Shown in pieces: positions 665 through 34,524 of a stretch of DNA of 64,000 nucleotides; position 1 is the stretch's first letter; each line of letters begins with the position of its first letter. Source of the DNA: Promicromonospora sp. AC04. Lineage in GTDB: Bacteria > Actinomycetota > Actinomycetes > Actinomycetales > Cellulomonadaceae. The notes under the pieces were generated by a model. The model had not been told where the DNA came from, made no database searches, and saw only the letters and a list, made by a program, of their open reading frames with translations. Both the position numbers and the translations under genes were made by a program. The stretch is taken from positions 1 through 64,000 of the forward strand of contig NZ_QBUG01000003.1 of assembly GCF_003058225.1 (NCBI RefSeq), read 5' to 3'.

Positions 665-1357
665 CTAGCCTGCGGCGAAGCCCAGCCGCAGCCCCAGCAT
701 CTCCTCGAGCTCCCCGTGTGTGACGCCGTAGGTCTCGACGACGCGTGCGCCGTCGTCGTCCCGGCGACCCGGCCCGACGTCGATTACTGCGATGTCGCTG
801 TAGATCCGCGACACGCAGCCCACTCCGGTGAGTGGCAGGGTGCATTCCCGGAGGAGCTTGGGCTGACCGTCCTTGGTCAGGAGCGTCATCATGACGACGC
901 TCCGCTTGGCGCCCACTGCGAGGTCCATCGCCCCGCCCACGGCGGGCACGGCGCCGGGCTTGCCGGTGGACCAGTTCGCGAGGTCTCCCGACGTCGAGAC
1001 CTGGAACGCCCCGAGCACGCAGACGTCGATGTGCCCGCCGCGCATCATGGCGAACGAGTCGGCCTGGTGGAAGTAGGAAGCACCGGCGAGCTCCGTCACC
1101 GGGACCTTGCCGGCGTTGATGAGCTCGGGGTCCACGGCATCCGGCTCCGGGGTCGGGCCCATGCCGAGCAGCCCGTTCTCCGTGTGCAGTGTGATGCCGG
1201 AGTCCTCGGGGAGGTGGTCGGCCACGAGCGTCGGCAGGCCGATACCCAGGTTCACGTAGGAGCCCGGCCTGATGTCGGCGGCGACGCGGGCCGCCAGCTG
1301 CGCCTTGGACAGCGGCGACCCGCTCCGCGCGTCCGCCGGGATCGTCTCCGCGCTCAT
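665..1357 (-). CDS. pcaJ: 3-oxoadipate CoA-transferase, subunit B
   Basis: Beta subunit of a family I CoA-transferase, 230 aa, which fits the family's usual length. With subunit A it moves CoA from succinyl-CoA to 3-oxoadipate in the cytoplasm, in the lower beta-ketoadipate pathway. Visible marks are the glycine-rich LGIGLPTL near residue 37 and the ENGLLGMG segment near residue 60 that carries the catalytic glutamate. Its ATG overlaps the stop of the A subunit (ATGA), so the two are translationally coupled. A generic 3-oxoacid (acetoacetate) CoA-transferase is the alternative. The pca call rests on the adjacent thiolase and IclR regulator. Confidence 0.82.
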   Translation of the reverse strand: MSAETIPADARSGSPLSKAQLAARVAADIRPGSYVNLGIGLPTLVADHLPEDSGITLHTENGLLGMGPTPEPDAVDPELINAGKVPVTELAGASYFHQADSFAMMRGGHIDVCVLGAFQVSTSGDLANWSTGKPGAVPAVGGAMDLAVGAKRSVVMMTLLTKDGQPKLLRECTLPLTGVGCVSRIYSDIAVIDVGPGRRDDDGARVVETYGVTHGELEEMLGLRLGFAAG

Positions 1358-2067
1358 GAAGCGACTCCTCGCGCCCCGGGCTGCACGCCCGCGAGCGTGG
1401 TCACGCTGTCGATCGGCACGACGGCGTCGACGTAGATCCCCGGGGTCACCACCGTCTCGGGATCGATCGACCCGGTCGGCACGACCTCGTGTACCTGCAC
1501 CACGGTTCGCCGAGCCGCCGTGGCCATGACCGGCCCGAAGTTCCGGGCGGTCTTGCGGTAGACGAGGTTCCCGACGCCGTCGGCCCGGAGCGCCTTGACC
1601 AGCGCGACGTCGGCGCGGATGGGCGACTCAAGGACCATGGGGACGCCGTCGACCAGGCGGGTCTCCTTGCCCTCGGCCAGCGGCGTGCCGAAGCCGGTGG
1701 GCGTGAAGAAGCCGCCCAAGCCGGCGCCCGCCGCGCGGATCCGTTCGGCCAGGTTGCCCTGCGGCACCAGCTCGAGCTCGATCTCGCCCGCGCGGTACGC
1801 GGCGTCGAAGTGCCACGAGTCCACCTGGCGGGGGAACGAGCACACGATCTTGCGCACGCGGCGTTCGAGGATGAGCCGCGCCAGGGCGTCCTCGCCGTTG
1901 CCCGCGTTGTTGGAGACGACGACGAGGTCGCCGGCGCCCTGTTCCAGCAGCGCCTCGATGAGCTCGACCGGCTGCCCGGCGGGCCCGAACCCGCCGATCA
2001 TCACGGTCGAGCCGTCGGCGACGTCGCCCACCGCCTCCAAGGCGGTCCGCGCGAGCTGGACGGTCAT
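1354..2067 (-). CDS. pcaI: 3-oxoadipate CoA-transferase, subunit A
   Basis: Alpha subunit of the same transferase, 237 aa. The start chosen is MTVQLART, because it overlaps the stop of the upstream thiolase gene in an ATGA junction and places the family motif GGFGPAGQP near residue 24, as expected. The open frame continues upstream but that part is out-of-frame thiolase sequence. It ends in an ATGA overlap with pcaJ. Gene order pcaF-pcaI-pcaJ on one strand with one-base-pair spacing logic indicates a single mRNA and stoichiometric synthesis of the two subunits. Confidence 0.82.
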   Translation of the reverse strand: MTVQLARTALEAVGDVADGSTVMIGGFGPAGQPVELIEALLEQGAGDLVVVSNNAGNGEDALARLILERRVRKIVCSFPRQVDSWHFDAAYRAGEIELELVPQGNLAERIRAAGAGLGGFFTPTGFGTPLAEGKETRLVDGVPMVLESPIRADVALVKALRADGVGNLVYRKTARNFGPVMATAARRTVVQVHEVVPTGSIDPETVVTPGIYVDAVVPIDSVTTLAGVQPGARGVAS

Positions 2068-3257
2068 GCGGCGGCCCGCACGTTCTCCAGGACCACTGCC
2101 ATGCCCTGGCCGACGCCGATACAGATCGCGGCCACGCCCCAGCGCTGGTTCTCCGCGACCAGCCGGCGCGCGAGCGTACCGAGGATGCGCGTGCCGGACG
2201 CGCCGAGCGGGTGGCCGAGCGCCGTCGCTCCGCCCCACGCGTTCACGATGTCCAGGTCGATGCCCCACGCGTCGACACAGACGAGCGACTGTGCGGCGAA
2301 CGCCTCGTTGAGCTCGACGGCGCCGACGTCGTCCCAGCTGATGCCGCTCTTCGCGAGGGCGCGGTCGGCGGCCTCCACCGGGGCGTAGCCGAAGTACTGC
2401 GGCTCGTTGCCGACCGACGCGCGGCCCGCGATGCGGGCCAGCGGTTCCAGGCCGGTGCTGGTCGCCGCCGACTCCGAGCCGATCAGGGCGGCGCTGGCGC
2501 CGTCCGTCAGCGGGGAGGCGTTGCCCGCCGTGATGGTGCCGCCCTCCGCGCGGAAGGACGGCTTCAGCGACGCCAGCTTCTCCAGGGTGCCGTCCGGGCG
2601 GACGGGCTCGTCGCGCCGCAGGTCGGCATCGGGGTGGGGGGTGACCAGGTCGTCGTACCGGCCGTCCTCCCACGCCTCGTGCGCCAGGCGGTGGCTGCGC
2701 AGGGCGAACTCGTCCTGGCGCTCCCGCGTGACGCCGTACTTCTCACGCAGGCGTTCCGTAGCCTCGCCGAGGGAGACCGTCCATTCCGGCCGCATCTTCT
2801 TGTTGACCAGGCGCCAGCCCAGCGTGGTGGAGACCAGCTCGGCGCCGCCCGCCGGGTAGGCACGCTCCGGCTTGGGCATCACCCACGGCGCACGGCTCAT
2901 GGACTCGACGCCGCCCGCCACGACGACGTCGGCGTCGCCGGACTCGACGGCGCGGGCCGCCTGCACGGCGGCCTCCAGCGACGAGCCGCACAGCCGGTTC
3001 ACGGTGACGCCGGGGACCGACAGCGGAAGCCCGGCCAGCAGCACGGCCATCCGCGCCACGTTCCGGTTGTCCTCACCCGCCCCGTTCGCGTTGCCGAGGA
3101 TCACGTCGTCGATCCGGACCGGGTCCAGCCCCGGTGCACGGCGCACCTGCTCCCCGACGACATAAGCCGCCAGGTCGTCCGGCCGCACCGTGGCAAGCGC
3201 CCCGCCGTAGCGGCCGAAGGGCGTGCGCACCGCGTCGTAGACGAATGCCTGCCTCAT
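2064..3257 (-). CDS. pcaF: Beta-ketoadipyl-CoA thiolase
   Basis: Type II thiolase, 397 aa. It would cleave 3-oxoadipyl-CoA with CoA to succinyl-CoA and acetyl-CoA, the last step of protocatechuate/catechol degradation. The acylated cysteine is in NRLCGSSLEA (about residue 90). The HPLGASG histidine motif is near 350 and the second cysteine lies in CIGVGQG near 380, where most thiolases have CIGGGQG. The start MRQAFVYD is preceded by AGGTGG; an upstream ATG in frame lies in the regulatory repeat. It is the first gene of pcaFIJ, 72 bp downstream of pcaR on the same strand. A general acetyl-CoA acetyltransferase is the alternative. Confidence 0.82.
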   Translation of the reverse strand: MRQAFVYDAVRTPFGRYGGALATVRPDDLAAYVVGEQVRRAPGLDPVRIDDVILGNANGAGEDNRNVARMAVLLAGLPLSVPGVTVNRLCGSSLEAAVQAARAVESGDADVVVAGGVESMSRAPWVMPKPERAYPAGGAELVSTTLGWRLVNKKMRPEWTVSLGEATERLREKYGVTRERQDEFALRSHRLAHEAWEDGRYDDLVTPHPDADLRRDEPVRPDGTLEKLASLKPSFRAEGGTITAGNASPLTDGASAALIGSESAATSTGLEPLARIAGRASVGNEPQYFGYAPVEAADRALAKSGISWDDVGAVELNEAFAAQSLVCVDAWGIDLDIVNAWGGATALGHPLGASGTRILGTLARRLVAENQRWGVAAICIGVGQGMAVVLENVRAAA

Positions 3258-24938: not shown

Positions 24939-26066
24939 TCAGAGGTCGGCGGGGTCTACCAGAAAGCCGTCCTCGTCGGCGATCTCGCCTCCGGCGGCGC
25001 CCTGGATCGTGCTCGCGAGCCGGGCCACCAGCTCCGCCGCGCGCTTGCGTGCGATCCGCAGCTCCATGGCGGGGAACTCCCGCTGCGACTCCACGAGGTC
25101 CTGCGGCTCCCAGTGCACCCAGTAGCGCACCGCGCCCTGCTCCGCCCACGGCAGGCCGCGCAGCAGGCGCGGCAGCTTCTCCTCGCCACTGATCTCGACC
25201 GAGACGATGCCGTCGACGCCGAGCTCCACGACCAGGCCGTACCCGTCCAGGACGCGCGGGCCGGTGAGCGCCTTGATGTCGTAGTCGTCCGCGGCCGCGT
25301 GGATCTTCTTGCGCAGCTCGGGGTCCAGGGTCTCGCCCCGGTACAGCGGCTTGTCCGCGATGCCGTCCGGCGGACCGCCCCACTCCTTGCCGTCCATGTG
25401 GAGACGGGCGCGCGGGTGCACCTTCTGCAGGATCGTGTGCGCGGCCTGCGGGTCGAGCCAGACGTCGGAGTACACGGTCATGTCGATCGCTGCCCCGGCG
25501 TCCGGGGTGAGCACGACGCCGGCGCCGGGCTTCGCCGTCGGGCTGCCCGGGGCGGCCGTGGCGTCCCAGATACCGCCGACGTCCAGGCGGAGGGAACCGC
25601 CCAGCCGCCGCGCGACGGCGACGAGCCACTCGACGATGCGGCGCTCCTCGCGCTCGGGCATCCCGGCCGCGAAGGCCCGCCCGATGCCGTCGCGATCGCC
25701 CGCGGGGAACGGCGGCTCCCCCCGCTCGCGGTGGCAGACGATGTCGAAGGCCATCGCCGCACCCGGCGGCACACCGAGGTCGAAACCGTCGCCCGAGGGC
25801 AGGTACGGCCCGTTCATCACCGCGTGCCGCGAGACCCGCAGCACGCCCGGCTCGCGGCCCTGCGCGCGGCGGCCCTGCGGGGCACCCGCCACGTTGCCCG
25901 GGAAGATCCCGACGGGGACCACGTCCCAGCGGGTGGCGGAGAAACGCGAGAGTGCGAGGACCTCGATCTCGTCCAGCTCCACGTCACCGGGCACGGTCAG
26001 AACGTGTCGCGCCTGGTGTGCCTGCGCGACCGTGCGCGGCAAGAGCGGGAGCTGGGGAGCGGCCAT
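24939..26066 (-). CDS. Uncharacterised protein, family copy 1
   Basis: 375 aa, no signal peptide or membrane segment, acidic. I do not recognise a named domain. It shares a central block with the protein at 33514-34524 (DRDGI-x-x-AF ... EE-x-RIV-x-W ... VA-x-AR-x-x-GG) and a similar C-terminal D-GF motif, so the two are diverged paralogues. The C-terminal third is charged and rich in Trp/Arg. It lies alone between convergent bpa and co-directional dcd. 87 bp separate it from bpa. Confidence 0.75.
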   Translation of the reverse strand: MAAPQLPLLPRTVAQAHQARHVLTVPGDVELDEIEVLALSRFSATRWDVVPVGIFPGNVAGAPQGRRAQGREPGVLRVSRHAVMNGPYLPSGDGFDLGVPPGAAMAFDIVCHRERGEPPFPAGDRDGIGRAFAAGMPEREERRIVEWLVAVARRLGGSLRLDVGGIWDATAAPGSPTAKPGAGVVLTPDAGAAIDMTVYSDVWLDPQAAHTILQKVHPRARLHMDGKEWGGPPDGIADKPLYRGETLDPELRKKIHAAADDYDIKALTGPRVLDGYGLVVELGVDGIVSVEISGEEKLPRLLRGLPWAEQGAVRYWVHWEPQDLVESQREFPAMELRIARKRAAELVARLASTIQGAAGGEIADEDGFLVDPADL

Positions 26067-28380: not shown

Positions 28381-28412
28381 GTTAGGTGGGTTCCGTGTCT
28401 AGAGAGGGACGT

Positions 28413-29132
28413 GTGACTGCCGCAAGCATCGCCAAGGATCTTCGTGCCGCGATCCGCTCCGGAACGTACAAACCGGGCGATCGCCTTCCGAGCGAAGCAG
28501 CGCTCATGTCGAACTACGGCGTGGCGCGCATGACCGCGCGCCACGGCCTGTCGATGCTCAAGGACGAGGGCCTGACCGTGACCCGCCACGGCTCCGGTGT
28601 GTTCGTCCGGGCTTTCGAGCCGATCGTGCGGGACAGCACGGGCGGCAAGGTGGACGAGTCCACCGTGACCGCCGAGATCGACGAGACCGGCGCGGGCCTT
28701 ACGGTCCGCACGCTCGCCGTCACGGCGGAGGCGGAGCCGTCCGAGAAGATCCGCACGGCGCTCGGTCTCGCGAAGGGCGAAAAGGTCACCGTGCGCGAGC
28801 GCCTGCACCTGCGGGAGCGCAAGCCCGTGCTGTTCGCGACGTCGTACCTGCCCTCGTCGATCGCGGCCGGGACACCGATCGCGGACCAGGAGATCGGGCC
28901 GGGCGGTACGCACGCGCGCCTGACCGAGGCCGGGCACGCGCCGGTGCGGTTCCGCGAGGACGTCGTGGCCCGTATGCCGACGATCGAGGAGATCGAGGAG
29001 CTGCGCATCGAGCCCGGCACGCCGGTGCTCTCGGTCACGCGCACCGCGTTCACGCAGGACGGCGCGGCCGTCGAGGTCAGCCACGTGGTGCTCGACGCCG
29101 GCGAGTTCATGCTCCGGTACGACATCGACTGA
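28413..29132 (+). CDS. GntR/UTRA-family regulator
   Basis: 239 aa from the GTG at 28413 with GAGAGGGAC just upstream; two earlier in-frame GTGs lack such a site. Winged helix at residues 3-65 (GDRLPSEAALMSNYGVARMT) and UTRA ligand domain after residue 80. It resembles the AICE repressor at 5677-6456 in type. It probably controls the divergent WTG-family pair. Confidence 0.82.
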   Translation: MTAASIAKDLRAAIRSGTYKPGDRLPSEAALMSNYGVARMTARHGLSMLKDEGLTVTRHGSGVFVRAFEPIVRDSTGGKVDESTVTAEIDETGAGLTVRTLAVTAEAEPSEKIRTALGLAKGEKVTVRERLHLRERKPVLFATSYLPSSIAAGTPIADQEIGPGGTHARLTEAGHAPVRFREDVVARMPTIEEIEELRIEPGTPVLSVTRTAFTQDGAAVEVSHVVLDAGEFMLRYDID

Positions 29133-29156
29133 CACCGACGCCGGCCGGACCCGACC

Positions 29157-30071
29157 TCACAGGAGCCGGAGCCTCCGCTCGGCCACCCCGATCCGGACCT
29201 CCTGGCCCCAGGAGACCTCGAGCCGGTCGGCCTCCATACCGTCCCCGAACACCACCAGCCGGTCGGACTGGACGGTCACGACGAGCTCGCGGTCGTCGTC
29301 GAGCACGCCCTCGGTCATCGTGACGCCGGTGATGGGCGACGGCCAGGCCTCACGAACGAACCAGGCCAGAGCCGGGTCGGTGGGTTCGGGCAGCCTGCGG
29401 CCGCCGCGGTCGTGCGCTATCGAGGCGCACCACCCGGTGGCGCCGGTGCCCGTACTGACGATCAGGCCCGACGACGACTGCCGCTCCGACCCGCCGTCGA
29501 CCGCCAGCGTGTAGCGCGCCGACTGGTGGCTCGGGTGCCCCAGGAACAGCTCGTTGACGGCGCGGAGCTCCTGGCCGTCGTCGAGCCGCGCGTGGACCAT
29601 GGTGAGCTCGTCACAGAGCAGGGCCGCGAACGATGCCTGGTTCGCGCCGCCCTGCGGGGCGGCCAGGTTGTCGATGATCTCGGCGACGCTCTCGACCTCG
29701 TGCCGTACCAGGACGCCGAGGTTGGCACCCGGCTCGGGGTTTACGCCGACCACGAGCTGCTGGTCCAGGTACTTGGCCGCGTTCGCGACCAGCCCGTCCT
29801 GGCCCACCACGAGGACGACGTCCTCGGGCGCGAAGAGGAAGCGGTCCAGGTCGGCCCGTTCCACCTCCGCGAGCGCCCAGTCGGACGGCACGCTCGCCGC
29901 GACTGCCCGGCGGGCCGATGCGGCGGCCTCGTGCCGGGCCTCGACCTCCGCCAGGGTGCGACCGCGAGTGCGGAGGAAGAACTCCGCCTGACCGCGCGTG
30001 GCGTGCCGGTCCAGCAGCTCGTCGAGCTCGGTGCGGCGGTGTACGAGCACCGCCCGGGTGCGGAGCGCCAC
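29157..30071 (-). CDS. NAD-kinase-like protein (COG0061 fold)
   Basis: 304 aa. The N-terminal domain has VVGQDGLVANAAKYL where true NAD kinases have GGDG, followed by VVGVNPEPGANLGVL. The C-terminal domain has STGTGATGW where NAD kinases have the GSTAY turn. The conserved Asp is kept, so activity is possible but substrate may differ. The GTG start one base after the SPFH stop is chosen; an ATG at 30098 overlapping it would add 9 residues. It forms an operon with the SPFH gene, under the twin boxes at 31134-31182. Confidence 0.75.
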   Translation of the reverse strand: MALRTRAVLVHRRTELDELLDRHATRGQAEFFLRTRGRTLAEVEARHEAAASARRAVAASVPSDWALAEVERADLDRFLFAPEDVVLVVGQDGLVANAAKYLDQQLVVGVNPEPGANLGVLVRHEVESVAEIIDNLAAPQGGANQASFAALLCDELTMVHARLDDGQELRAVNELFLGHPSHQSARYTLAVDGGSERQSSSGLIVSTGTGATGWCASIAHDRGGRRLPEPTDPALAWFVREAWPSPITGVTMTEGVLDDDRELVVTVQSDRLVVFGDGMEADRLEVSWGQEVRIGVAERRLRLL

Positions 30072-30072
30072 G

Positions 30073-31110
30073 TCAGTGCCCCGCGGCCGGCGCGCCATCC
30101 GACGTCGACTCGCTCGCCCGGGACGTCAGCGCGCTCAGGAGACCGCTCACCAGGTCGGGCGTGACGGTCAGCGAGCCCACGCTGGGCAGGTGCGGTGCGG
30201 CGTCGCGCAGAGCGAGGGCGGTGAGCACGTCGCGCCCGACGTTCGCGTAGACCTCCATGAGTGCCGCCTCCTTGGCTGCCTCGGCCTCACCGAGCTGCCG
30301 CAGCGAGGCGGCCTGGGCGGCCGCGGCGATCTCGCGACGCTCGGCGTCGGACCTGGCCGACACGAGTGCGGCCGCCGCAGCTTCTTCGGCCTCACGCCGC
30401 TTGTTCGCCCCTTCCTGGGCGACGAGCTGCTCGCGCCGGGCGGCGAGCTCGATCTGGCTCGCGAGCTCGTTCTCCGCGATCTTGCGTTCCCGCTCGACGG
30501 CGACCGCGCGCCGCTCGTAAGTCGCACGATCGGCCTCGGACTGGAGCCGCTCACGCACGGGCGTGCGCAGGGCCTTCTCGACGTCGCCCTCCGGCCGGAT
30601 CGCGAGCACCCGCACACCCAGCACCTCGATACCCGTCGCAACCAGGCGAGCGTCGTCGCCCAGCGCGCCAAGTGCCGTCCGCACACGCCCGATGCCGGAC
30701 TCGAGCGCCTCGGCCAGGTCCAGCGTGGCGATCAGGTCGACGGTGAGGCTCTGTGCGAGCTGGCCCACGATGGCGCCCACCTGCTGGCGGCCGCTCGCCT
30801 CCTGCCCCATGCCCGTGGCGGGAAAGATGCCGAAGTCGAGGCGCTGGGACGCGAGGACCGGGTCGCCGAACCGGTAGGTGACGTTCGACTGCACGCTGAC
30901 GTCCTGCTGGTCGCGCGTGACGGCGTGGAACAGGACCGGGAGCTCCTGGTCGGTTGCGGGCACCTCGCTGAGCACCGACGTGTCGGGGCGGAACCAGAAG
31001 GCCTGACCCACGCCCTCGTGCCGCACGCGGCCATTGCTGAGGTGCACCACGTAGTCGCTCGCGGAGCCCAGGAACTGGCGGATCCAGGGGTAGCGCTTGA
31101 TCGTTGCCAT
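30073..31110 (-). CDS. SPFH/band 7 (slipin-like) protein
   Basis: 345 aa from MATIKRYPW with GGAGGAGAA 9 nt upstream. SPFH domain at about residues 40-210, then a long Ala/Glu/Arg-rich coiled coil (about 205-285), then a C-terminal helical tail. There is no clear N-terminal membrane helix, unusual for slipins; membrane contact may be peripheral. SPFH proteins oligomerise into membrane scaffolds. Cotranscribed with the NAD-kinase-like gene. Confidence 0.82.
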   Translation of the reverse strand: MATIKRYPWIRQFLGSASDYVVHLSNGRVRHEGVGQAFWFRPDTSVLSEVPATDQELPVLFHAVTRDQQDVSVQSNVTYRFGDPVLASQRLDFGIFPATGMGQEASGRQQVGAIVGQLAQSLTVDLIATLDLAEALESGIGRVRTALGALGDDARLVATGIEVLGVRVLAIRPEGDVEKALRTPVRERLQSEADRATYERRAVAVERERKIAENELASQIELAARREQLVAQEGANKRREAEEAAAAALVSARSDAERREIAAAAQAASLRQLGEAEAAKEAALMEVYANVGRDVLTALALRDAAPHLPSVGSLTVTPDLVSGLLSALTSRASESTSDGAPAAGH

Positions 31111-31133
31111 CGTCGACTTCTCCTCCATCATTG

Positions 31134-31182
31134 TCGTCACTTTGACGATATCTACCCGCTCGGCTTTTCGTCAAGGTGACGA
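31134..31182. promoter_or_regulatory. Twin NrtR-type operator boxes
   Basis: Two identical-arm palindromes, TCGTCA-CTT-TGACGA (31134-31148) and TCGTCA-AGG-TGACGA (31168-31182), centres 34 bp apart, in the 90-bp gap between the divergent SPFH and Nudix regulator genes. One overlaps the leftward promoter and the other the region just upstream of TACCGT (31188-31193), the likely -10 of the regulator gene. They are the natural targets of the Nudix regulator. Confidence 0.7.
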
Positions 31183-31200
31183 GAATGTACCGTCGATGCC

Positions 31201-31977
31201 ATGGCCCGTACAGCCCTCCCCCCGCCCGCCGTGCCCGGCACCGCGGGCGCCTTCCCCGTCACCGTCGACGTCGTAGCCCTCACGGTGCGCGGCGCGGCCC
31301 TGCACGCCCTCGTGGTCGACCGGCTCCTGGAGCCGTATCGCGGCCAGGCCGCGCTGCCGGGCGGGTTCGTGCTGCCGGGCGAAACCCTTGAGCAGGCGGC
31401 GGGACGGGAGCTCGAGGAGGAGACGGGGCTGACGGTGCCGGCCGGCGTGACCGGCACCGGGCCATGGCACCTGGAGCAGCTCCGAACCTACGGCCCGCTC
31501 GGGCGGGACCCACGCGGCCCTGTGCTCTCTGTCGCGTACCTCCTGCTCGCGCCCGCGTTCGGGCTGCCCGCGGCGGGCGGCGACGCGGCCGAGGCCCGCT
31601 GGGTCCCGGTCGGCGGCACGACGGCGCACCTCGCCTTCGACCACGACCGCATCCTGGCCGACGGCGTGGAGCGGGCCCGCGCCAAGCTCGAGTACTCCCC
31701 CCTGGCAGCGGCGTTCTGCCCGCCCGAGTTCACGGTCGCCGAGCTACGCGGTGTGTACGAGGCGGTCTGGGGCACCCACCTGGACGCGCGCAACTTCCAC
31801 CGCAAGGCCACGGGCACGCCAGGCTTCCTGGAGCCGACCGGACGCCTGGGCGGGAGCGGGCCCGGTCGGCCTGCCGAGCTCTACCGCCTGGCGGCCGGCG
31901 TCGACCCGACGGCGGCCGTGCTGCACCCGCCGCTGCTGCGACAGGTCAGCCCTGGCCCGGCCGCGCCCTCGGCTTGA
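31201..31977 (+). CDS. nrtR: NrtR-type Nudix transcriptional regulator
   Basis: 258 aa. N-terminal Nudix fold (about 20-150) with a partial Nudix box GFVLPGETLEQAAGRELEEETGL (catalytic REx2EE retained as RELEEE), and a C-terminal winged helix (FTVAELRGVYEAVWGTHLDARNF). NrtR proteins bind ADP-ribose and release DNA when NAD turnover products rise; they control NAD metabolism genes. Here the divergent targets are an SPFH scaffold and an NAD-kinase-like protein. TACCGT 7 nt before the ATG suggests leaderless transcription. The 3' end overlaps the pirin gene by 32 bp, convergently. Confidence 0.82.
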   Translation: MARTALPPPAVPGTAGAFPVTVDVVALTVRGAALHALVVDRLLEPYRGQAALPGGFVLPGETLEQAAGRELEEETGLTVPAGVTGTGPWHLEQLRTYGPLGRDPRGPVLSVAYLLLAPAFGLPAAGGDAAEARWVPVGGTTAHLAFDHDRILADGVERARAKLEYSPLAAAFCPPEFTVAELRGVYEAVWGTHLDARNFHRKATGTPGFLEPTGRLGGSGPGRPAELYRLAAGVDPTAAVLHPPLLRQVSPGPAAPSA

Positions 31978-32986
31978 GGCGCAGATCGGGCAGCGCGGGC
32001 GCGCGCAGCGGCCCGCTCGGATAGCCCCGCACCTGGCCGAACAGGCGCCCGGCGGCGCCGTCGGCGTACCCCGTCGCCCCGGCGTCGAGCTCGGCGATCT
32101 GTGCCATCCAGCCGTCGCGGGCCCGGACGATGTCCTCGTGCGTGCGGCCCATGAAGTTCCACCACATGACGACGTCCTCGGCGAACGGCTCCCCGCCGAT
32201 CAGGACCGCCCGGGCGGGCGCCCCGGCCCCGGCACGCACGGCGAGCACGGACCGTCCCGGCGCCACGTAACCGAGGTTCGACGGCGGGACGACGCGGGTC
32301 TCGAAGGTCACGTCGCCGGTGTCCACGAGCAGGGCGTGCTCGTGCGCCGGGTCGACGTCGAGCCGCACCTCGGCGCCCGGCTCCAGGTCGATCTGCGCAC
32401 CCACGAGGGGCGTGTACGTCGTCGCGGGCGAGGCCAGCTCCTCGCCGGCGACCGCGAGGCGGCCGATGAACACCTGCACGACGGCGCCGTCGGCCCGTGC
32501 GACCGGGAGGTCGCCGTGGTGCTCGAAGTGCGGGTCTACGCCGAGGGCAGCGCCGGGCAGCGCCGTCCACAGCTGAACCCCGTGCAACCGGGGCGGGCGC
32601 CCCTGCGCGGGCGACTCCTCAGAGTGCGAGATGCCGACACCCGCGGTCATGAGGTTGAGCTCGCCCGGCCGGACCGTCTGGAGCGACCCCACGGAGTCGC
32701 GGTGCAGGATCTCGCCCGCGAAGAGCCAGCTCACCGTCTGCAGCCCGGTGTGCGGGTGCGGGGGAACCTGCATGCCCTCGCCGGACGAGACGTCGTCGGG
32801 GCCGTAGTGGTCGCTGAAGCACCACGCCCCCACGAGCGACCGGGCGCGCTGCGGGATGGTGCGCCGGACGTTCATCGCCCGCGGTCCGCCGAGCGGCACG
32901 TCGCGCGGGGTGAGGAGCTCGATGCCGTCGCCCTGCTCGCCGGCGGTGCAGACCTGCTCGTCCGGCCGGGTCTCGAGGTTGCTCAT
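31946..32986 (-). CDS. Pirin-family protein
   Basis: 346 aa bicupin. N-terminal pirin cupin with PHPHTGLQTVSW and the metal-binding histidines, followed by LMTAGVGISHSEE; a second cupin at the C-terminus ends near residue 300. Pirins bind iron and can act as quercetinases or redox regulators. The role here is open. Preceded by 520 bp of non-coding DNA. Confidence 0.85.
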   Translation of the reverse strand: MSNLETRPDEQVCTAGEQGDGIELLTPRDVPLGGPRAMNVRRTIPQRARSLVGAWCFSDHYGPDDVSSGEGMQVPPHPHTGLQTVSWLFAGEILHRDSVGSLQTVRPGELNLMTAGVGISHSEESPAQGRPPRLHGVQLWTALPGAALGVDPHFEHHGDLPVARADGAVVQVFIGRLAVAGEELASPATTYTPLVGAQIDLEPGAEVRLDVDPAHEHALLVDTGDVTFETRVVPPSNLGYVAPGRSVLAVRAGAGAPARAVLIGGEPFAEDVVMWWNFMGRTHEDIVRARDGWMAQIAELDAGATGYADGAAGRLFGQVRGYPSGPLRAPALPDLRLKPRARPGQG

Positions 32987-33513: not shown

Positions 33514-34524
33514 TCAGACCCAGGCGCGCGAACCCGGAGCGCCACCTGCGGTCGAGTCGTTGCGCCCGTCCAGCTCCTCCGGGGTGGCGATGAAGCCGCC
33601 GTCGTCCACGAGGATCCCGGCGATCCGGCTCTGGAGGGCTACCGCGAGGCGGGCCAGCGAGGCGCGCATACGTGCCCGGGCGATGACGTGCAGCCCGGAC
33701 GCGTGCTCGAGCTCCAGCTCGTAGGGGTCGGCCGGCATCCAGGCCATGCGATACGCGAACGGTCCGTAGCTGCGCCAGTCCAGCGACCCGAGCGCGCGCG
33801 GCACCCGGTCGACGCGCTCCACGTCGACCACTATCGCGCCGTCGTAGGCGGTGCTGCCCGCGAGGGTGTAGCGCGGCGACCCGTCGGGCGTGACCTGCTC
33901 GGCGGTCACGTCGGCCGTCGCGATGAGCGAGCGGAGCATGGGCAGCACGTCGCCGGGCAGCAGGGCGTGCGCGGCGTAGAGCGACAGGTTGACGGACGCC
34001 GCGGGGTCCGGGACCAGCGGCTGCCGGCCGTCGGCGAGCACGCCCCCGCCGGTCTTGCGGGCCGCCGCGACCATCCACTGCACGATGCGCAGCTCCTCGC
34101 CCTGCGGCAGCGCGTGCGGGAAGGCATGGGCGATGCCGTCGCGGTCGTCGTACGACGTCGGGGCCGCGCCACGGACGTCCCGCAGACCGTCGCTGCGCGC
34201 CACGGAGTAAGCCTCCGCCGTGGCGGCGGAGATCCCCACCTCGGCGAGGTGCGCCTCGCCGACCTCGAAGGGGCCGGTCGCGACGTGCCCGTCCCCCAGC
34301 CGCATGACGCCGGGGGTGAGCAAGTCGGGCTGCGCCATGCCCCGGAACCGGGCTCCGGCCATCCGTCGCGTACCCGAGGTGCGGGACGGTTCTCGGAGCC
34401 ACGCAATGTCAGAGAACCACGCGGCGGCGAGCTCGCTCACCGCGACCGGTCCGTTCGTACTGGGCAGGATCAGAATGTGACCCGAAGCATGCTCCGCAGG
34501 GATCACGCCCGCCAGAAATGTCAT
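33514..34524 (-). CDS. Uncharacterised protein, family copy 2
   Basis: 336 aa, no signal peptide or membrane span. It matches the 24939-26066 protein in the central block (DRDGIAHAF, EELRIVQWMVAAARKTGG) and ends with DDGGFIATPEEL like the other's DEDGFLVDPADL. Outside these blocks the two are very different in sequence, so the duplication is old. The start at 34524 is uncertain; MAGARFRGM further in is an alternative. Confidence 0.72.
   Translation of the reverse strand: MTFLAGVIPAEHASGHILILPSTNGPVAVSELAAAWFSDIAWLREPSRTSGTRRMAGARFRGMAQPDLLTPGVMRLGDGHVATGPFEVGEAHLAEVGISAATAEAYSVARSDGLRDVRGAAPTSYDDRDGIAHAFPHALPQGEELRIVQWMVAAARKTGGGVLADGRQPLVPDPAASVNLSLYAAHALLPGDVLPMLRSLIATADVTAEQVTPDGSPRYTLAGSTAYDGAIVVDVERVDRVPRALGSLDWRSYGPFAYRMAWMPADPYELELEHASGLHVIARARMRASLARLAVALQSRIAGILVDDGGFIATPEELDGRNDSTAGGAPGSRAWV

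What the first reader, a model, noticed from the sequence alone, without database searches (positions are those of the whole stretch)
29157..31977. NAD(ADP-ribose)-linked SPFH module: NrtR-type regulator facing an SPFH scaffold and an NAD-kinase-like protein
Seen: two boxes with identical arms (TCGTCA-N3-TGACGA) between a divergent Nudix/winged-helix regulator and a two-gene unit of SPFH protein and NAD-kinase-like protein. Known: NrtR regulators sense ADP-ribose and control NAD synthesis. Inference: this NrtR controls a membrane scaffold and an altered NAD kinase rather than biosynthesis genes, so the module could answer NAD depletion or ADP-ribose release, for example during phage attack or stress. 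The GQDG change in the kinase and the missing membrane anchor in the SPFH protein are unusual.
Basis: partly seen in the sequence, partly recalled or inferred. Interest (0 to 1): 0.72.

Follow-up and report, generated by a model that had tools for sequence, protein, structure and literature searches.

The report
ADP-ribose-linked SPFH and kinase operon
A compact three-gene cassette, in which a sensor probably tuned to a breakdown product of the cell's NAD coenzyme controls a scaffold protein and an unusual NAD-kinase relative, recurs as a unit in many bacteria and was not found described in the papers that could be searched.

Summary
The two TCGTCA-N3-TGACGA boxes are the only exact ones in the window (0.01 expected). 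The genes are an NrtR-type regulator, a Band_7/SPFH protein and an NAD-kinase relative (NADKL). The trio is a conserved unit: in the best 80 of 553 relatives (these 80 are actinobacterial), 80 have SPFH upstream of NADKL and 76 the divergent regulator. Trios also occur in proteobacterial records. In six same-genus genomes without the trio its flanking genes lie 19-103 bp apart. In 76 of 80 loci two boxes overlap or flank the SPFH promoter: the -35 lies in one box, a -10 17-18 nt downstream. This is repression architecture. GQDG is a family signature, never GGDG in 80. By sequence NADKL is nearest human mitochondrial NADK2. ADP-ribose contact residues of Shewanella NrtR are conserved; the Nudix core is intact in 76 of 76 regulators of that set, unlike described NrtRs. 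Best reading: an ADP-ribose-derepressed SPFH/NADK2-like module acting on the NAD(P) pool. A phage-defence role found no support. Ligand, activity and assembly are untested.

The parts
29157..30098 (-). NADK2-like protein gene (called NADKL here); possible alternative start GTG at 30071
   Evidence: NCBIfam NAD kinase E 1.5e-6, below cut-off; PDB NADK2 E 2e-8, profile E 1e-21; AlphaFold2 pLDDT 90, Foldseek NADK2 E 1e-17; GQDGLVAN, NE and DG motifs
30073..31110 (-). SPFH/Band_7 protein gene, no transmembrane segment by hydropathy
   Evidence: Pfam PF01145; AlphaFold2 pLDDT 83, pTM 0.56, helix 175-289; Foldseek HflK/C, stomatin, erlin, prohibitin, flotillin, vault; hydropathy
31134..31148 (.). 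promoter-proximal box TCGTCACTTTGACGA, presumed operator; overlaps the predicted -10 of the SPFH promoter
   Evidence: two boxes in 76 of 80 loci
31145..31150 (-). predicted -10 hexamer TATCGT of the SPFH-NADKL operon
   Evidence: TANNNT 17-18 nt from TTGACN in 76 of 76 two-box loci
31168..31182 (.). promoter-distal box TCGTCAAGGTGACGA, presumed operator; contains the predicted -35
   Evidence: two boxes in 76 of 80 loci
31169..31174 (-). predicted -35 hexamer TTGACG of the SPFH-NADKL operon
   Evidence: TTGAC in 76 of 76 distal boxes
31201..31977 (+). NrtR-type regulator (Nudix sensor + NrtR winged helix), divergent
   Evidence: Pfam PF00293 + PF21906; PDB AraR 2e-21, 3gz5 2e-19
29133..31977 (.). 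extent of the cassette that is present or absent as a whole between the GntR gene (28386-29132) and the pirin gene (31946-32986)
   Evidence: six same-genus genomes without the trio have these flanks 19-103 bp apart (junctions shown)

Best explanation
This is a self-contained regulon that is gained and lost as a unit. A repressor of the NrtR family, probably a dimer, binds two tandem operators at the -35 and -10 of the SPFH-NADKL promoter, beside its own divergent promoter, so the cassette is normally off (layout shown by comparison; binding and repression inferred). When ADP-ribose or a close relative accumulates because NAD is being cleaved, it binds the Nudix domain and releases the operators (inferred from conserved ADP-ribose contact residues). 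In most of the actinobacterial branch the intact Nudix centre may then hydrolyse the inducer and reset the switch (inferred). The operon makes an SPFH protein without a membrane anchor, which probably assembles into a ring or cage through its long helix (predicted fold only), and an NADK2-like enzyme that probably works with it to phosphorylate NAD(H) or an NAD-derived nucleotide and so protect or rebuild the NADP(H) pool beside the ordinary NAD kinase (inferred).
For: Linkage: SPFH 80 of 80, NrtR 76 of 80; trio in 21 of the 22 strongly matching genomes among 99 relatives. All-or-none presence: six empty sites. No recurrent fourth partner: no Pfam family in more than 4 of 104 neighbours of 40 loci. 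Promoter layout: TTGAC in 76 of 76 distal boxes, -10 at 17-18 nt in 76 of 76. Only perfect extended box in the own genome. ADP-ribose contacts Arg41 and Arg98 of Shewanella NrtR (passages of PMC4666351) correspond to Arg41 and Arg105, invariant in A6 and A8; a Providencia trio regulator matches 3gz5 end to end at E 1.7e-108. Nudix core intact in 76 of 76. Kinase residues: the GGDG Asp, the NE pair (E or D), Thr and the DG pair kept, matching four of five residues reported vital in Ppnk (passages of PMC8553519). A Pfam NAD_kinase_C gene is present elsewhere in 38 of 39 genomes including this one.
Against: No binding, ligand, enzyme or interaction data exist here. NrtR-family ligands vary: NdnR answers to NAD and AraR to arabinose (passages of PMC4666351). 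The second glycine of GGDG is never Gly in 80 loci (72 Gln, 7 Pro, 1 Ser) and the Asp of region II is Ser, so another substrate or no catalysis is possible. The Nudix core is impaired in the 6 proteobacterial trio regulators aligned and in one actinobacterial one, L044, so hydrolytic reset cannot be general. Of the four loci without NrtR, one (L154) keeps both boxes and one (L117) is a contig edge; L134 has NrtR but no boxes found. In genome G009 a truncated NADKL lies without SPFH or NrtR beside it. Loci were chosen by NADKL, so whether this SPFH type occurs without NADKL was not tested; one Streptomyces plasmid has a partial SPFH match and is not among the NADKL hits listed. The own-genome box search gave 13 near-matches outside the module against 2 for the reversed control; 8 of them lie in long high-GC3 frames and 5 were left unresolved.
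Confidence: 0.6

Rival explanations
1. NADKL is not an active kinase but a nucleotide sensor: the GQDG loop binds NAD(P)(H) or ADP-ribose and controls assembly or a client of the SPFH protein, so the module is a membrane or protein-quality response to NAD stress.
For: The second Gly of GGDG is replaced in 80 of 80 loci and the region II Asp by Ser in all 12 sequences of A7; the SPFH-NADKL pair is kept where NrtR is absent.
Against: The catalytic Asp, the NE pair, Thr221 and the DG pair are retained. The Ser also occurs in the matching stretch of human NADK2, reported to be an NAD kinase (passages of PMC8553519).
Confidence: 0.25
2. The NADKL substrate is not NAD but ADP-ribose or another ribosyl nucleotide, so the operon clears or caps the very molecule that induces it (substrate-induced detoxification).
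For: Inducer logic of NrtR; records of Rhizobium and Methylomonas name their members 'sugar kinase', which is only an annotation; altered GQDG and Asp-to-Ser change.
Against: Nearest sequences and folds are NAD kinases; no direct evidence on substrate.
Confidence: 0.2
3. The module is an anti-phage or inter-bacterial conflict system that is switched on by ADP-ribose released during NAD depletion.
For: ADP-ribose-type sensing, patchy distribution with presence on plasmids predicted conjugative, and analogous Nudix-TF-regulated ARG systems predicted to counter viral ADP-ribosylation (PMC9503650 section 3.8, read in full).
Against: One weak PADLOC match for the three proteins; 104 neighbours give 8 matches to 5 models, without a matched control; high sequence conservation (A4 mean column identity 63%) and a stable composition without swapped effectors, unlike the conflict systems described there.
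Confidence: 0.1

Closest known systems
NrtR family regulators (Shewanella NrtR; M. smegmatis NrtR; C. glutamicum NdnR; AraR)
   Same: Nudix sensor plus winged helix, divergent gene with palindromic boxes, ADP-ribose contact arginines kept
   Different: Described members control NAD biosynthesis or sugar genes and have an impaired Nudix motif (passages of PMC4666351, PMC6800001); here the target is SPFH-NADKL and the Nudix core is intact in 76 of 76 regulators of the 80-locus set. The box TATCGTCA-N3-TGACGATA differs from the M. smegmatis palindrome GTTTTCGA-N7-TCGAAAAC.
NAD kinases, nearest human mitochondrial NADK2
   Same: Fold, catalytic Asp, NE and DG motifs, Ser in place of the region II Asp, best profile match
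   Different: Second Gly of GGDG never Gly, followed by LVAN-AKY; below NCBIfam cut-offs, no Pfam hit; beside SPFH in 80 of 80 loci
SPFH/Band 7 proteins (HflK/C, stomatin, erlin, prohibitin, flotillin, vault protein)
   Same: Band_7 domain and long helix
   Different: No transmembrane anchor by hydropathy; paired with NADKL
ARG-centred systems with Nudix or WYL transcription factors (PMC9503650 section 3.8)
   Same: Nudix-HTH repressor proposed to sense ADP-ribose in front of an operon of accessory genes
   Different: No ARG, phosphatase, chaperone or nuclease in the trio; that paper's main text contains neither 'SPFH', 'stomatin' nor 'NAD kinase'

Membership tests
NrtR family | Nudix domain followed by NrtR winged-helix DNA-binding domain | tested here: met
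   PF00293 and PF21906 over cut-off
NrtR family | palindromic boxes between regulator and target | tested here: met
   two boxes in 76 of 80 loci and exact in the window; binding itself not tested
NrtR family | ADP-ribose contact residues of Shewanella NrtR (Arg41, Arg98) | tested here: met
   Arg41 and Arg105 invariant in A6 (34) and A8 (8); register. That 3gz5 is Shewanella NrtR is recalled; its PDB name is MutT/nudix family protein, and the paper's Arg41 and Arg98 do fall on arginines of that chain
NrtR family | impaired Nudix signature | tested here: not met
   GX5EX7REXXEE intact in 76 of 76 regulators of the 80-locus set; in A3 one of 14 (L044) has Val for the first Glu; impaired in 6 of 6 proteobacterial trio regulators and intact in the Treponema one. 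PMC4666351 gives the impairment as the state of NAD-metabolism NrtRs, not as a requirement of the family
NrtR family | regulates NAD metabolism genes | tested here: inconclusive
   only perfect extended box in the genome is here; the NADK-like target may or may not make NADP
NAD kinase | NAD kinase fold | tested here: met
   Foldseek E 1e-17, profile E 1e-21 to NADK2
NAD kinase | GGDG motif | tested here: not met
   G-Q/P/S-DG in 80 of 80; the Asp is kept
NAD kinase | NE/D motif and region II Thr and Tyr | tested here: inconclusive
   N182 invariant, position 183 Glu or Asp, T221 kept, Tyr replaced by Trp
NAD kinase | phosphorylates NAD | not testable with these tools
   needs an enzyme assay
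SPFH family | Band_7 domain over cut-off | tested here: met
   39.6 bits, cut-off 23.6
SPFH family | membrane association by an N-terminal hydrophobic anchor (present in many members) | tested here: not met
   no hydrophobic segment in 38 sequences; peripheral attachment not excluded
anti-phage defence system | match to known defence models or defence-island location | tested here: not met
   PADLOC-DB 2023 only, neighbours of 40 of 80 loci, no matched control

The most novel reading that the evidence does not exclude
The SPFH protein without an anchor forms a soluble, vault-like shell that houses or organises an NADK2-like kinase, and the whole compartment is built only when ADP-ribose signals that NAD is being destroyed: an inducible NAD(P)-salvage compartment spread between phyla on mobile DNA. 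The same structural search that finds HflK/C and stomatin also finds vault cages, including one solved with ADP-ribose. That is a resemblance of fold only, and the model's pTM is 0.56.
Probability: 0.1. Interest if true: 0.88.

Novelty: new variant of a known kind. Interest (0 to 1): 0.64.

Why it matters
It ties three separate fields: ADP-ribose sensing by Nudix repressors, SPFH scaffolds whose bacterial roles are largely unknown, and NAD kinase biology. It gives one type of bacterial SPFH protein a steady genomic partner (80 of 80 loci chosen by that partner), with a predicted inducer that a gel shift can test. It also points to a bacterial protein family whose best solved relative by sequence is human mitochondrial NADK2, with a diagnostic motif that would let databases stop calling it 'hypothetical protein' or 'sugar kinase'.

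Tried and rejected
Rejected or not borne out: (1) a chance box: only exact pair in 64 kb. (2) A wide regulon: 17 sites with up to one mismatch in the own genome (reversed control 2). Four of them are the module's two boxes read on two strands; of the other 13, 8 lie in long high-GC3 frames and 5 were not resolved, so further weak targets are not excluded. (3) A fourth partner gene: outside the trio the largest cluster was an ABC-transporter-like one in 14 of 69 loci at scattered positions, then phosphate-transporter-like and LacI-like clusters in 9 each; no family exceeds 4 of 104. The frame caller was crude and failed on 11 of 80 loci. (4) Phage cargo: no match in phages, 2 relatives in viral contigs, one of which, L189, has SPFH upstream but no NrtR hit. 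(5) Replacement of the normal NAD kinase: that gene is present elsewhere. (6) E. coli carriage: no match with the Providencia trio as DNA query.

Literature: all 10 searches used. NrtR+SPFH 0 papers; SPFH+NAD kinase 0; NAD kinase+Nudix+band 7 protein 0; NrtR+Nudix+NAD kinase 1 (PMC12178909, listing only); SPFH+Nudix 5, of which I saw passages of PMC7159879 and PMC10434189 and the other three only in the listing. Passages of PMC8965627 gave only a reference. Rodionov 2008 and Huang 2009, the core NrtR papers, are not held, so a mention there cannot be excluded.

The distance correlations of 0.88-0.91 have no species-tree control. The palindromes had no shuffle control. The VIA-align library was not available.
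Full report
What is there. In the window, 29157-31977, a divergent pair of transcription units faces each other. To the right, 31201-31977(+), is a Nudix protein with an NrtR winged-helix domain. To the left, on the minus strand, are an SPFH/Band_7 gene (30073-31110) and a gene related to NAD kinases (29157-30098, called NADKL here). The genome is probably a Promicromonospora: the best named locus is P. sukumoe L080 with 89% identity in NADKL (inference). The two boxes are exact and unique in the window, and the only perfect extended box in the genome lies here.

Conservation of the trio. Of 99 related genomes, 23 have an NADKL match, one of them weak (G094) and 22 strong. The trio was seen in 21 of those 22: in 19 of the 20 wide regions fetched, the exception being the weak one G094, plus the window and G002. 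In the remaining strong genome, G009, a truncated NADKL has no SPFH or NrtR near it. In G006 NADKL is broken by a frame change, which could be a sequencing error. All 80 have SPFH directly upstream and 76 have the divergent NrtR. Of the four without it, L117 is the edge of a short contig. In a sample of 396 genomes of the phylum, 14 match, one of them weakly, so the module is patchy. Distances between loci for the three proteins correlate at 0.88-0.91 against a permutation maximum of 0.16 over 75 loci. This shows shared history but has no species control.

A cassette gained or lost whole. Of 13 same-genus genomes (own included) 7 have an NADKL match and 6 do not. In those six the flanking GntR and pirin matches lie only 19-103 bp apart (junctions). 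In the window the same two genes flank the 2.8 kb cassette. Beyond the genus and the two genomes of genus g3, the tested flanking genes were not found beside the trio. A clustering of neighbours in 69 of 80 loci found no fourth gene at a fixed place; the largest other cluster, ABC-transporter-like, is in 14 loci at scattered positions, and phosphate-transporter-like and LacI-like clusters are in 9 each. A Pfam scan of 104 neighbours from 40 loci gives at most 4 members for one family, a phosphate transporter.

Beyond Actinomycetota. tblastn against plasmid records gives 64 records: 42 Rhizobium, four Streptomyces or Kitasatospora, one Treponema, and others that are mostly Proteobacteria among those listed. 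Annotated trios NUDIX - SPFH - 'sugar kinase' or hypothetical protein are in R. etli p42f, Providencia (a 489 kb record with housekeeping genes that may not be a true plasmid) and Methylomonas. Cupriavidus and Proteus show the three by tblastn; the Proteus record is of chromosome size. Treponema has SPFH-NADKL with a NUDIX gene about 4 kb away. Roseomonas and Kitasatospora have the pair without a NrtR match beside it. In a Psychrobacter plasmid only the C-terminal part of NADKL matched.

Promoter logic. In 76 of 80 loci two boxes were found upstream of SPFH. All 76 distal boxes carry TTGAC, although the palindrome does not demand the first T, and all 76 loci have TANNNT 17 or 18 nt downstream and, except for two loci with a further one at 26 nt, at no other spacing from 10 to 26. 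In 47 loci (box spacing 33-34) that -10 is TATCGT at the edge of the proximal box. In the other 29 (spacing 42-46, mainly Arthrobacter and Cellulosimicrobium relatives) a separate -10 is used and the proximal box lies further downstream. In the window the scan finds TTGACG-18-TATCGT on the minus strand and one other site on the plus strand; shuffles gave a mean of 0.0. A repressor on both boxes would be expected to block RNA polymerase. In Proteus, Providencia and Acinetobacter each intergenic region holds three GTC-N5-GAC palindromes, and Cupriavidus holds two long palindromes of another sequence (no shuffle control). Rhizobium, Methylomonas and Cupriavidus have no GTC-N5-GAC; Methylomonas has GWC-N5-GWC sites. 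So a tandem layout persists in several lineages while the letters differ.

The sensor. The regulator's nearest solved relatives are AraR (2e-21), 2fml (MutT/nudix, 1e-20) and 3gz5 (MutT/nudix, 2e-19). That 3gz5 is Shewanella NrtR is recalled. PMC4666351 (passages) states that in Shewanella NrtR Arg41 contacts the phosphate and Arg98 the O5D and O1B of ADP-ribose, and that Arg98 is Gly in arabinose-binding AraR. With the chain numbered three higher, both fall on arginines of 3gz5, and they correspond to Arg41 and Arg105 here, invariant in A6 (34 sequences) and A8 (8 sequences of three phyla). A Providencia trio regulator matches 3gz5 over its whole length at E 1.7e-108. ADP-ribose, or a near relative, is therefore the best guess, but NdnR answers to NAD, so this is inference. 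The same paper says the Nudix motif is impaired in NAD-metabolism NrtRs; PMC6800001 (passages) reports loss of hydrolase activity in M. smegmatis NrtR. Here the core GX5EX7REXXEE is intact in 76 of 76 regulators of the 80-locus set. Exceptions: L044 of the separate set A3 (1 of 14) has Val for the first Glu, and 6 of 6 proteobacterial trio regulators are impaired, while the Treponema one is intact. A self-clearing sensor in Actinomycetota is a testable idea.

The kinase-like protein. The AlphaFold2 model (pLDDT 90) matches NAD kinases, first mitochondrial NADK2 (1.4e-17) with P. aeruginosa NAD kinase close behind (3.9e-17), so the fold alone does not choose between them. By sequence a profile of 21 relatives finds NADK2 at 1e-21 and bacterial NAD kinases at about 5e-8. 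Profile alignment with 15 true NAD kinases places GQDG on GGDG, NE on NE and DG on DG. PMC8553519 (passages) lists Asp85, Asn159, Glu160, Thr200 and Tyr202 of Ppnk as vital; the counterparts here are Asp101, Asn182, Glu183 (Asp in some), Thr221 and Trp223 (my reading of the alignment). The second Gly of GGDG is Gln in 72, Pro in 7 and Ser in 1 of 80 loci, never Gly, and Gln in 12 of 12 sequences of three phyla. The change is thus old and kept, not decay. A gene with the Pfam NAD_kinase_C domain sits elsewhere in this genome and in 38 of 39 examined, so NADKL is an addition.

The SPFH protein. It starts directly with the beta-rich SPFH domain, followed by a helix of 115 residues (pLDDT 83, pTM 0.56). 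Foldseek's best hits are SPFH assemblies (7vhq, HflK/C) and stomatin, then erlin, prohibitin, flotillin and vault protein. None of 38 aligned members has a transmembrane segment by hydropathy. A soluble or peripherally bound ring or cage is the natural guess.

Defence? One weak PADLOC match, to the Nudix part, was found for the three proteins, and 104 neighbours of 40 loci give 8 matches to 5 models, without a matched control. Phage records have none. Section 3.8 of PMC9503650 (read in full) proposes Nudix-regulated ARG operons against viral ADP-ribosylation; the regulatory idea is the same, but apart from the Nudix regulator none of their components is in the trio.

Verdict. It is an NrtR-family regulon with a target pair not found in the papers that could be searched (searches listed under tried and rejected; the two core NrtR papers were not held), including an NADK2-like family without a Pfam model. 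How it works is inferred: ADP-ribose relieves repression, and an SPFH scaffold plus an NADK2-like enzyme act on the NAD(P) pool.

Noticed in passing
L181 (Proteus), L182 (pHHV216), L183 (Acinetobacter), L187 (Psychrobacter): NADKL genes, whole or as a remnant, lie directly beside tetR-tet(H) or shortly before tet(J), which suggests that these tetracycline genes were once picked up from next to the trio.
   Followed up: partly
window 24939-26066(-) and 33514-34524(-): Two hypothetical proteins on either side of the module that match each other's places in relatives at 26-29% identity: apparent distant paralogues.
   Followed up: no
L178 (Kitasatospora plasmid) and L154 (Kitasatospora phosalacinea): SPFH-NADKL with two boxes but no NrtR match beside them; the regulator may act from elsewhere.
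   Followed up: no
Arthrobacter and Cellulosimicrobium relatives among L083-L135: 29 of 76 two-box loci have a box spacing of 42-46 instead of 33-34, with a separate -10 between the boxes: the same logic with about one more helical turn.
   Followed up: partly
L189 (IMG/VR contig), 1272-3226: A viral-collection contig carrying a divergent SPFH-NADKL pair (NADKL 30% identity), GQDG kept but LVAN changed to LVVN, no NrtR hit.
   Followed up: partly
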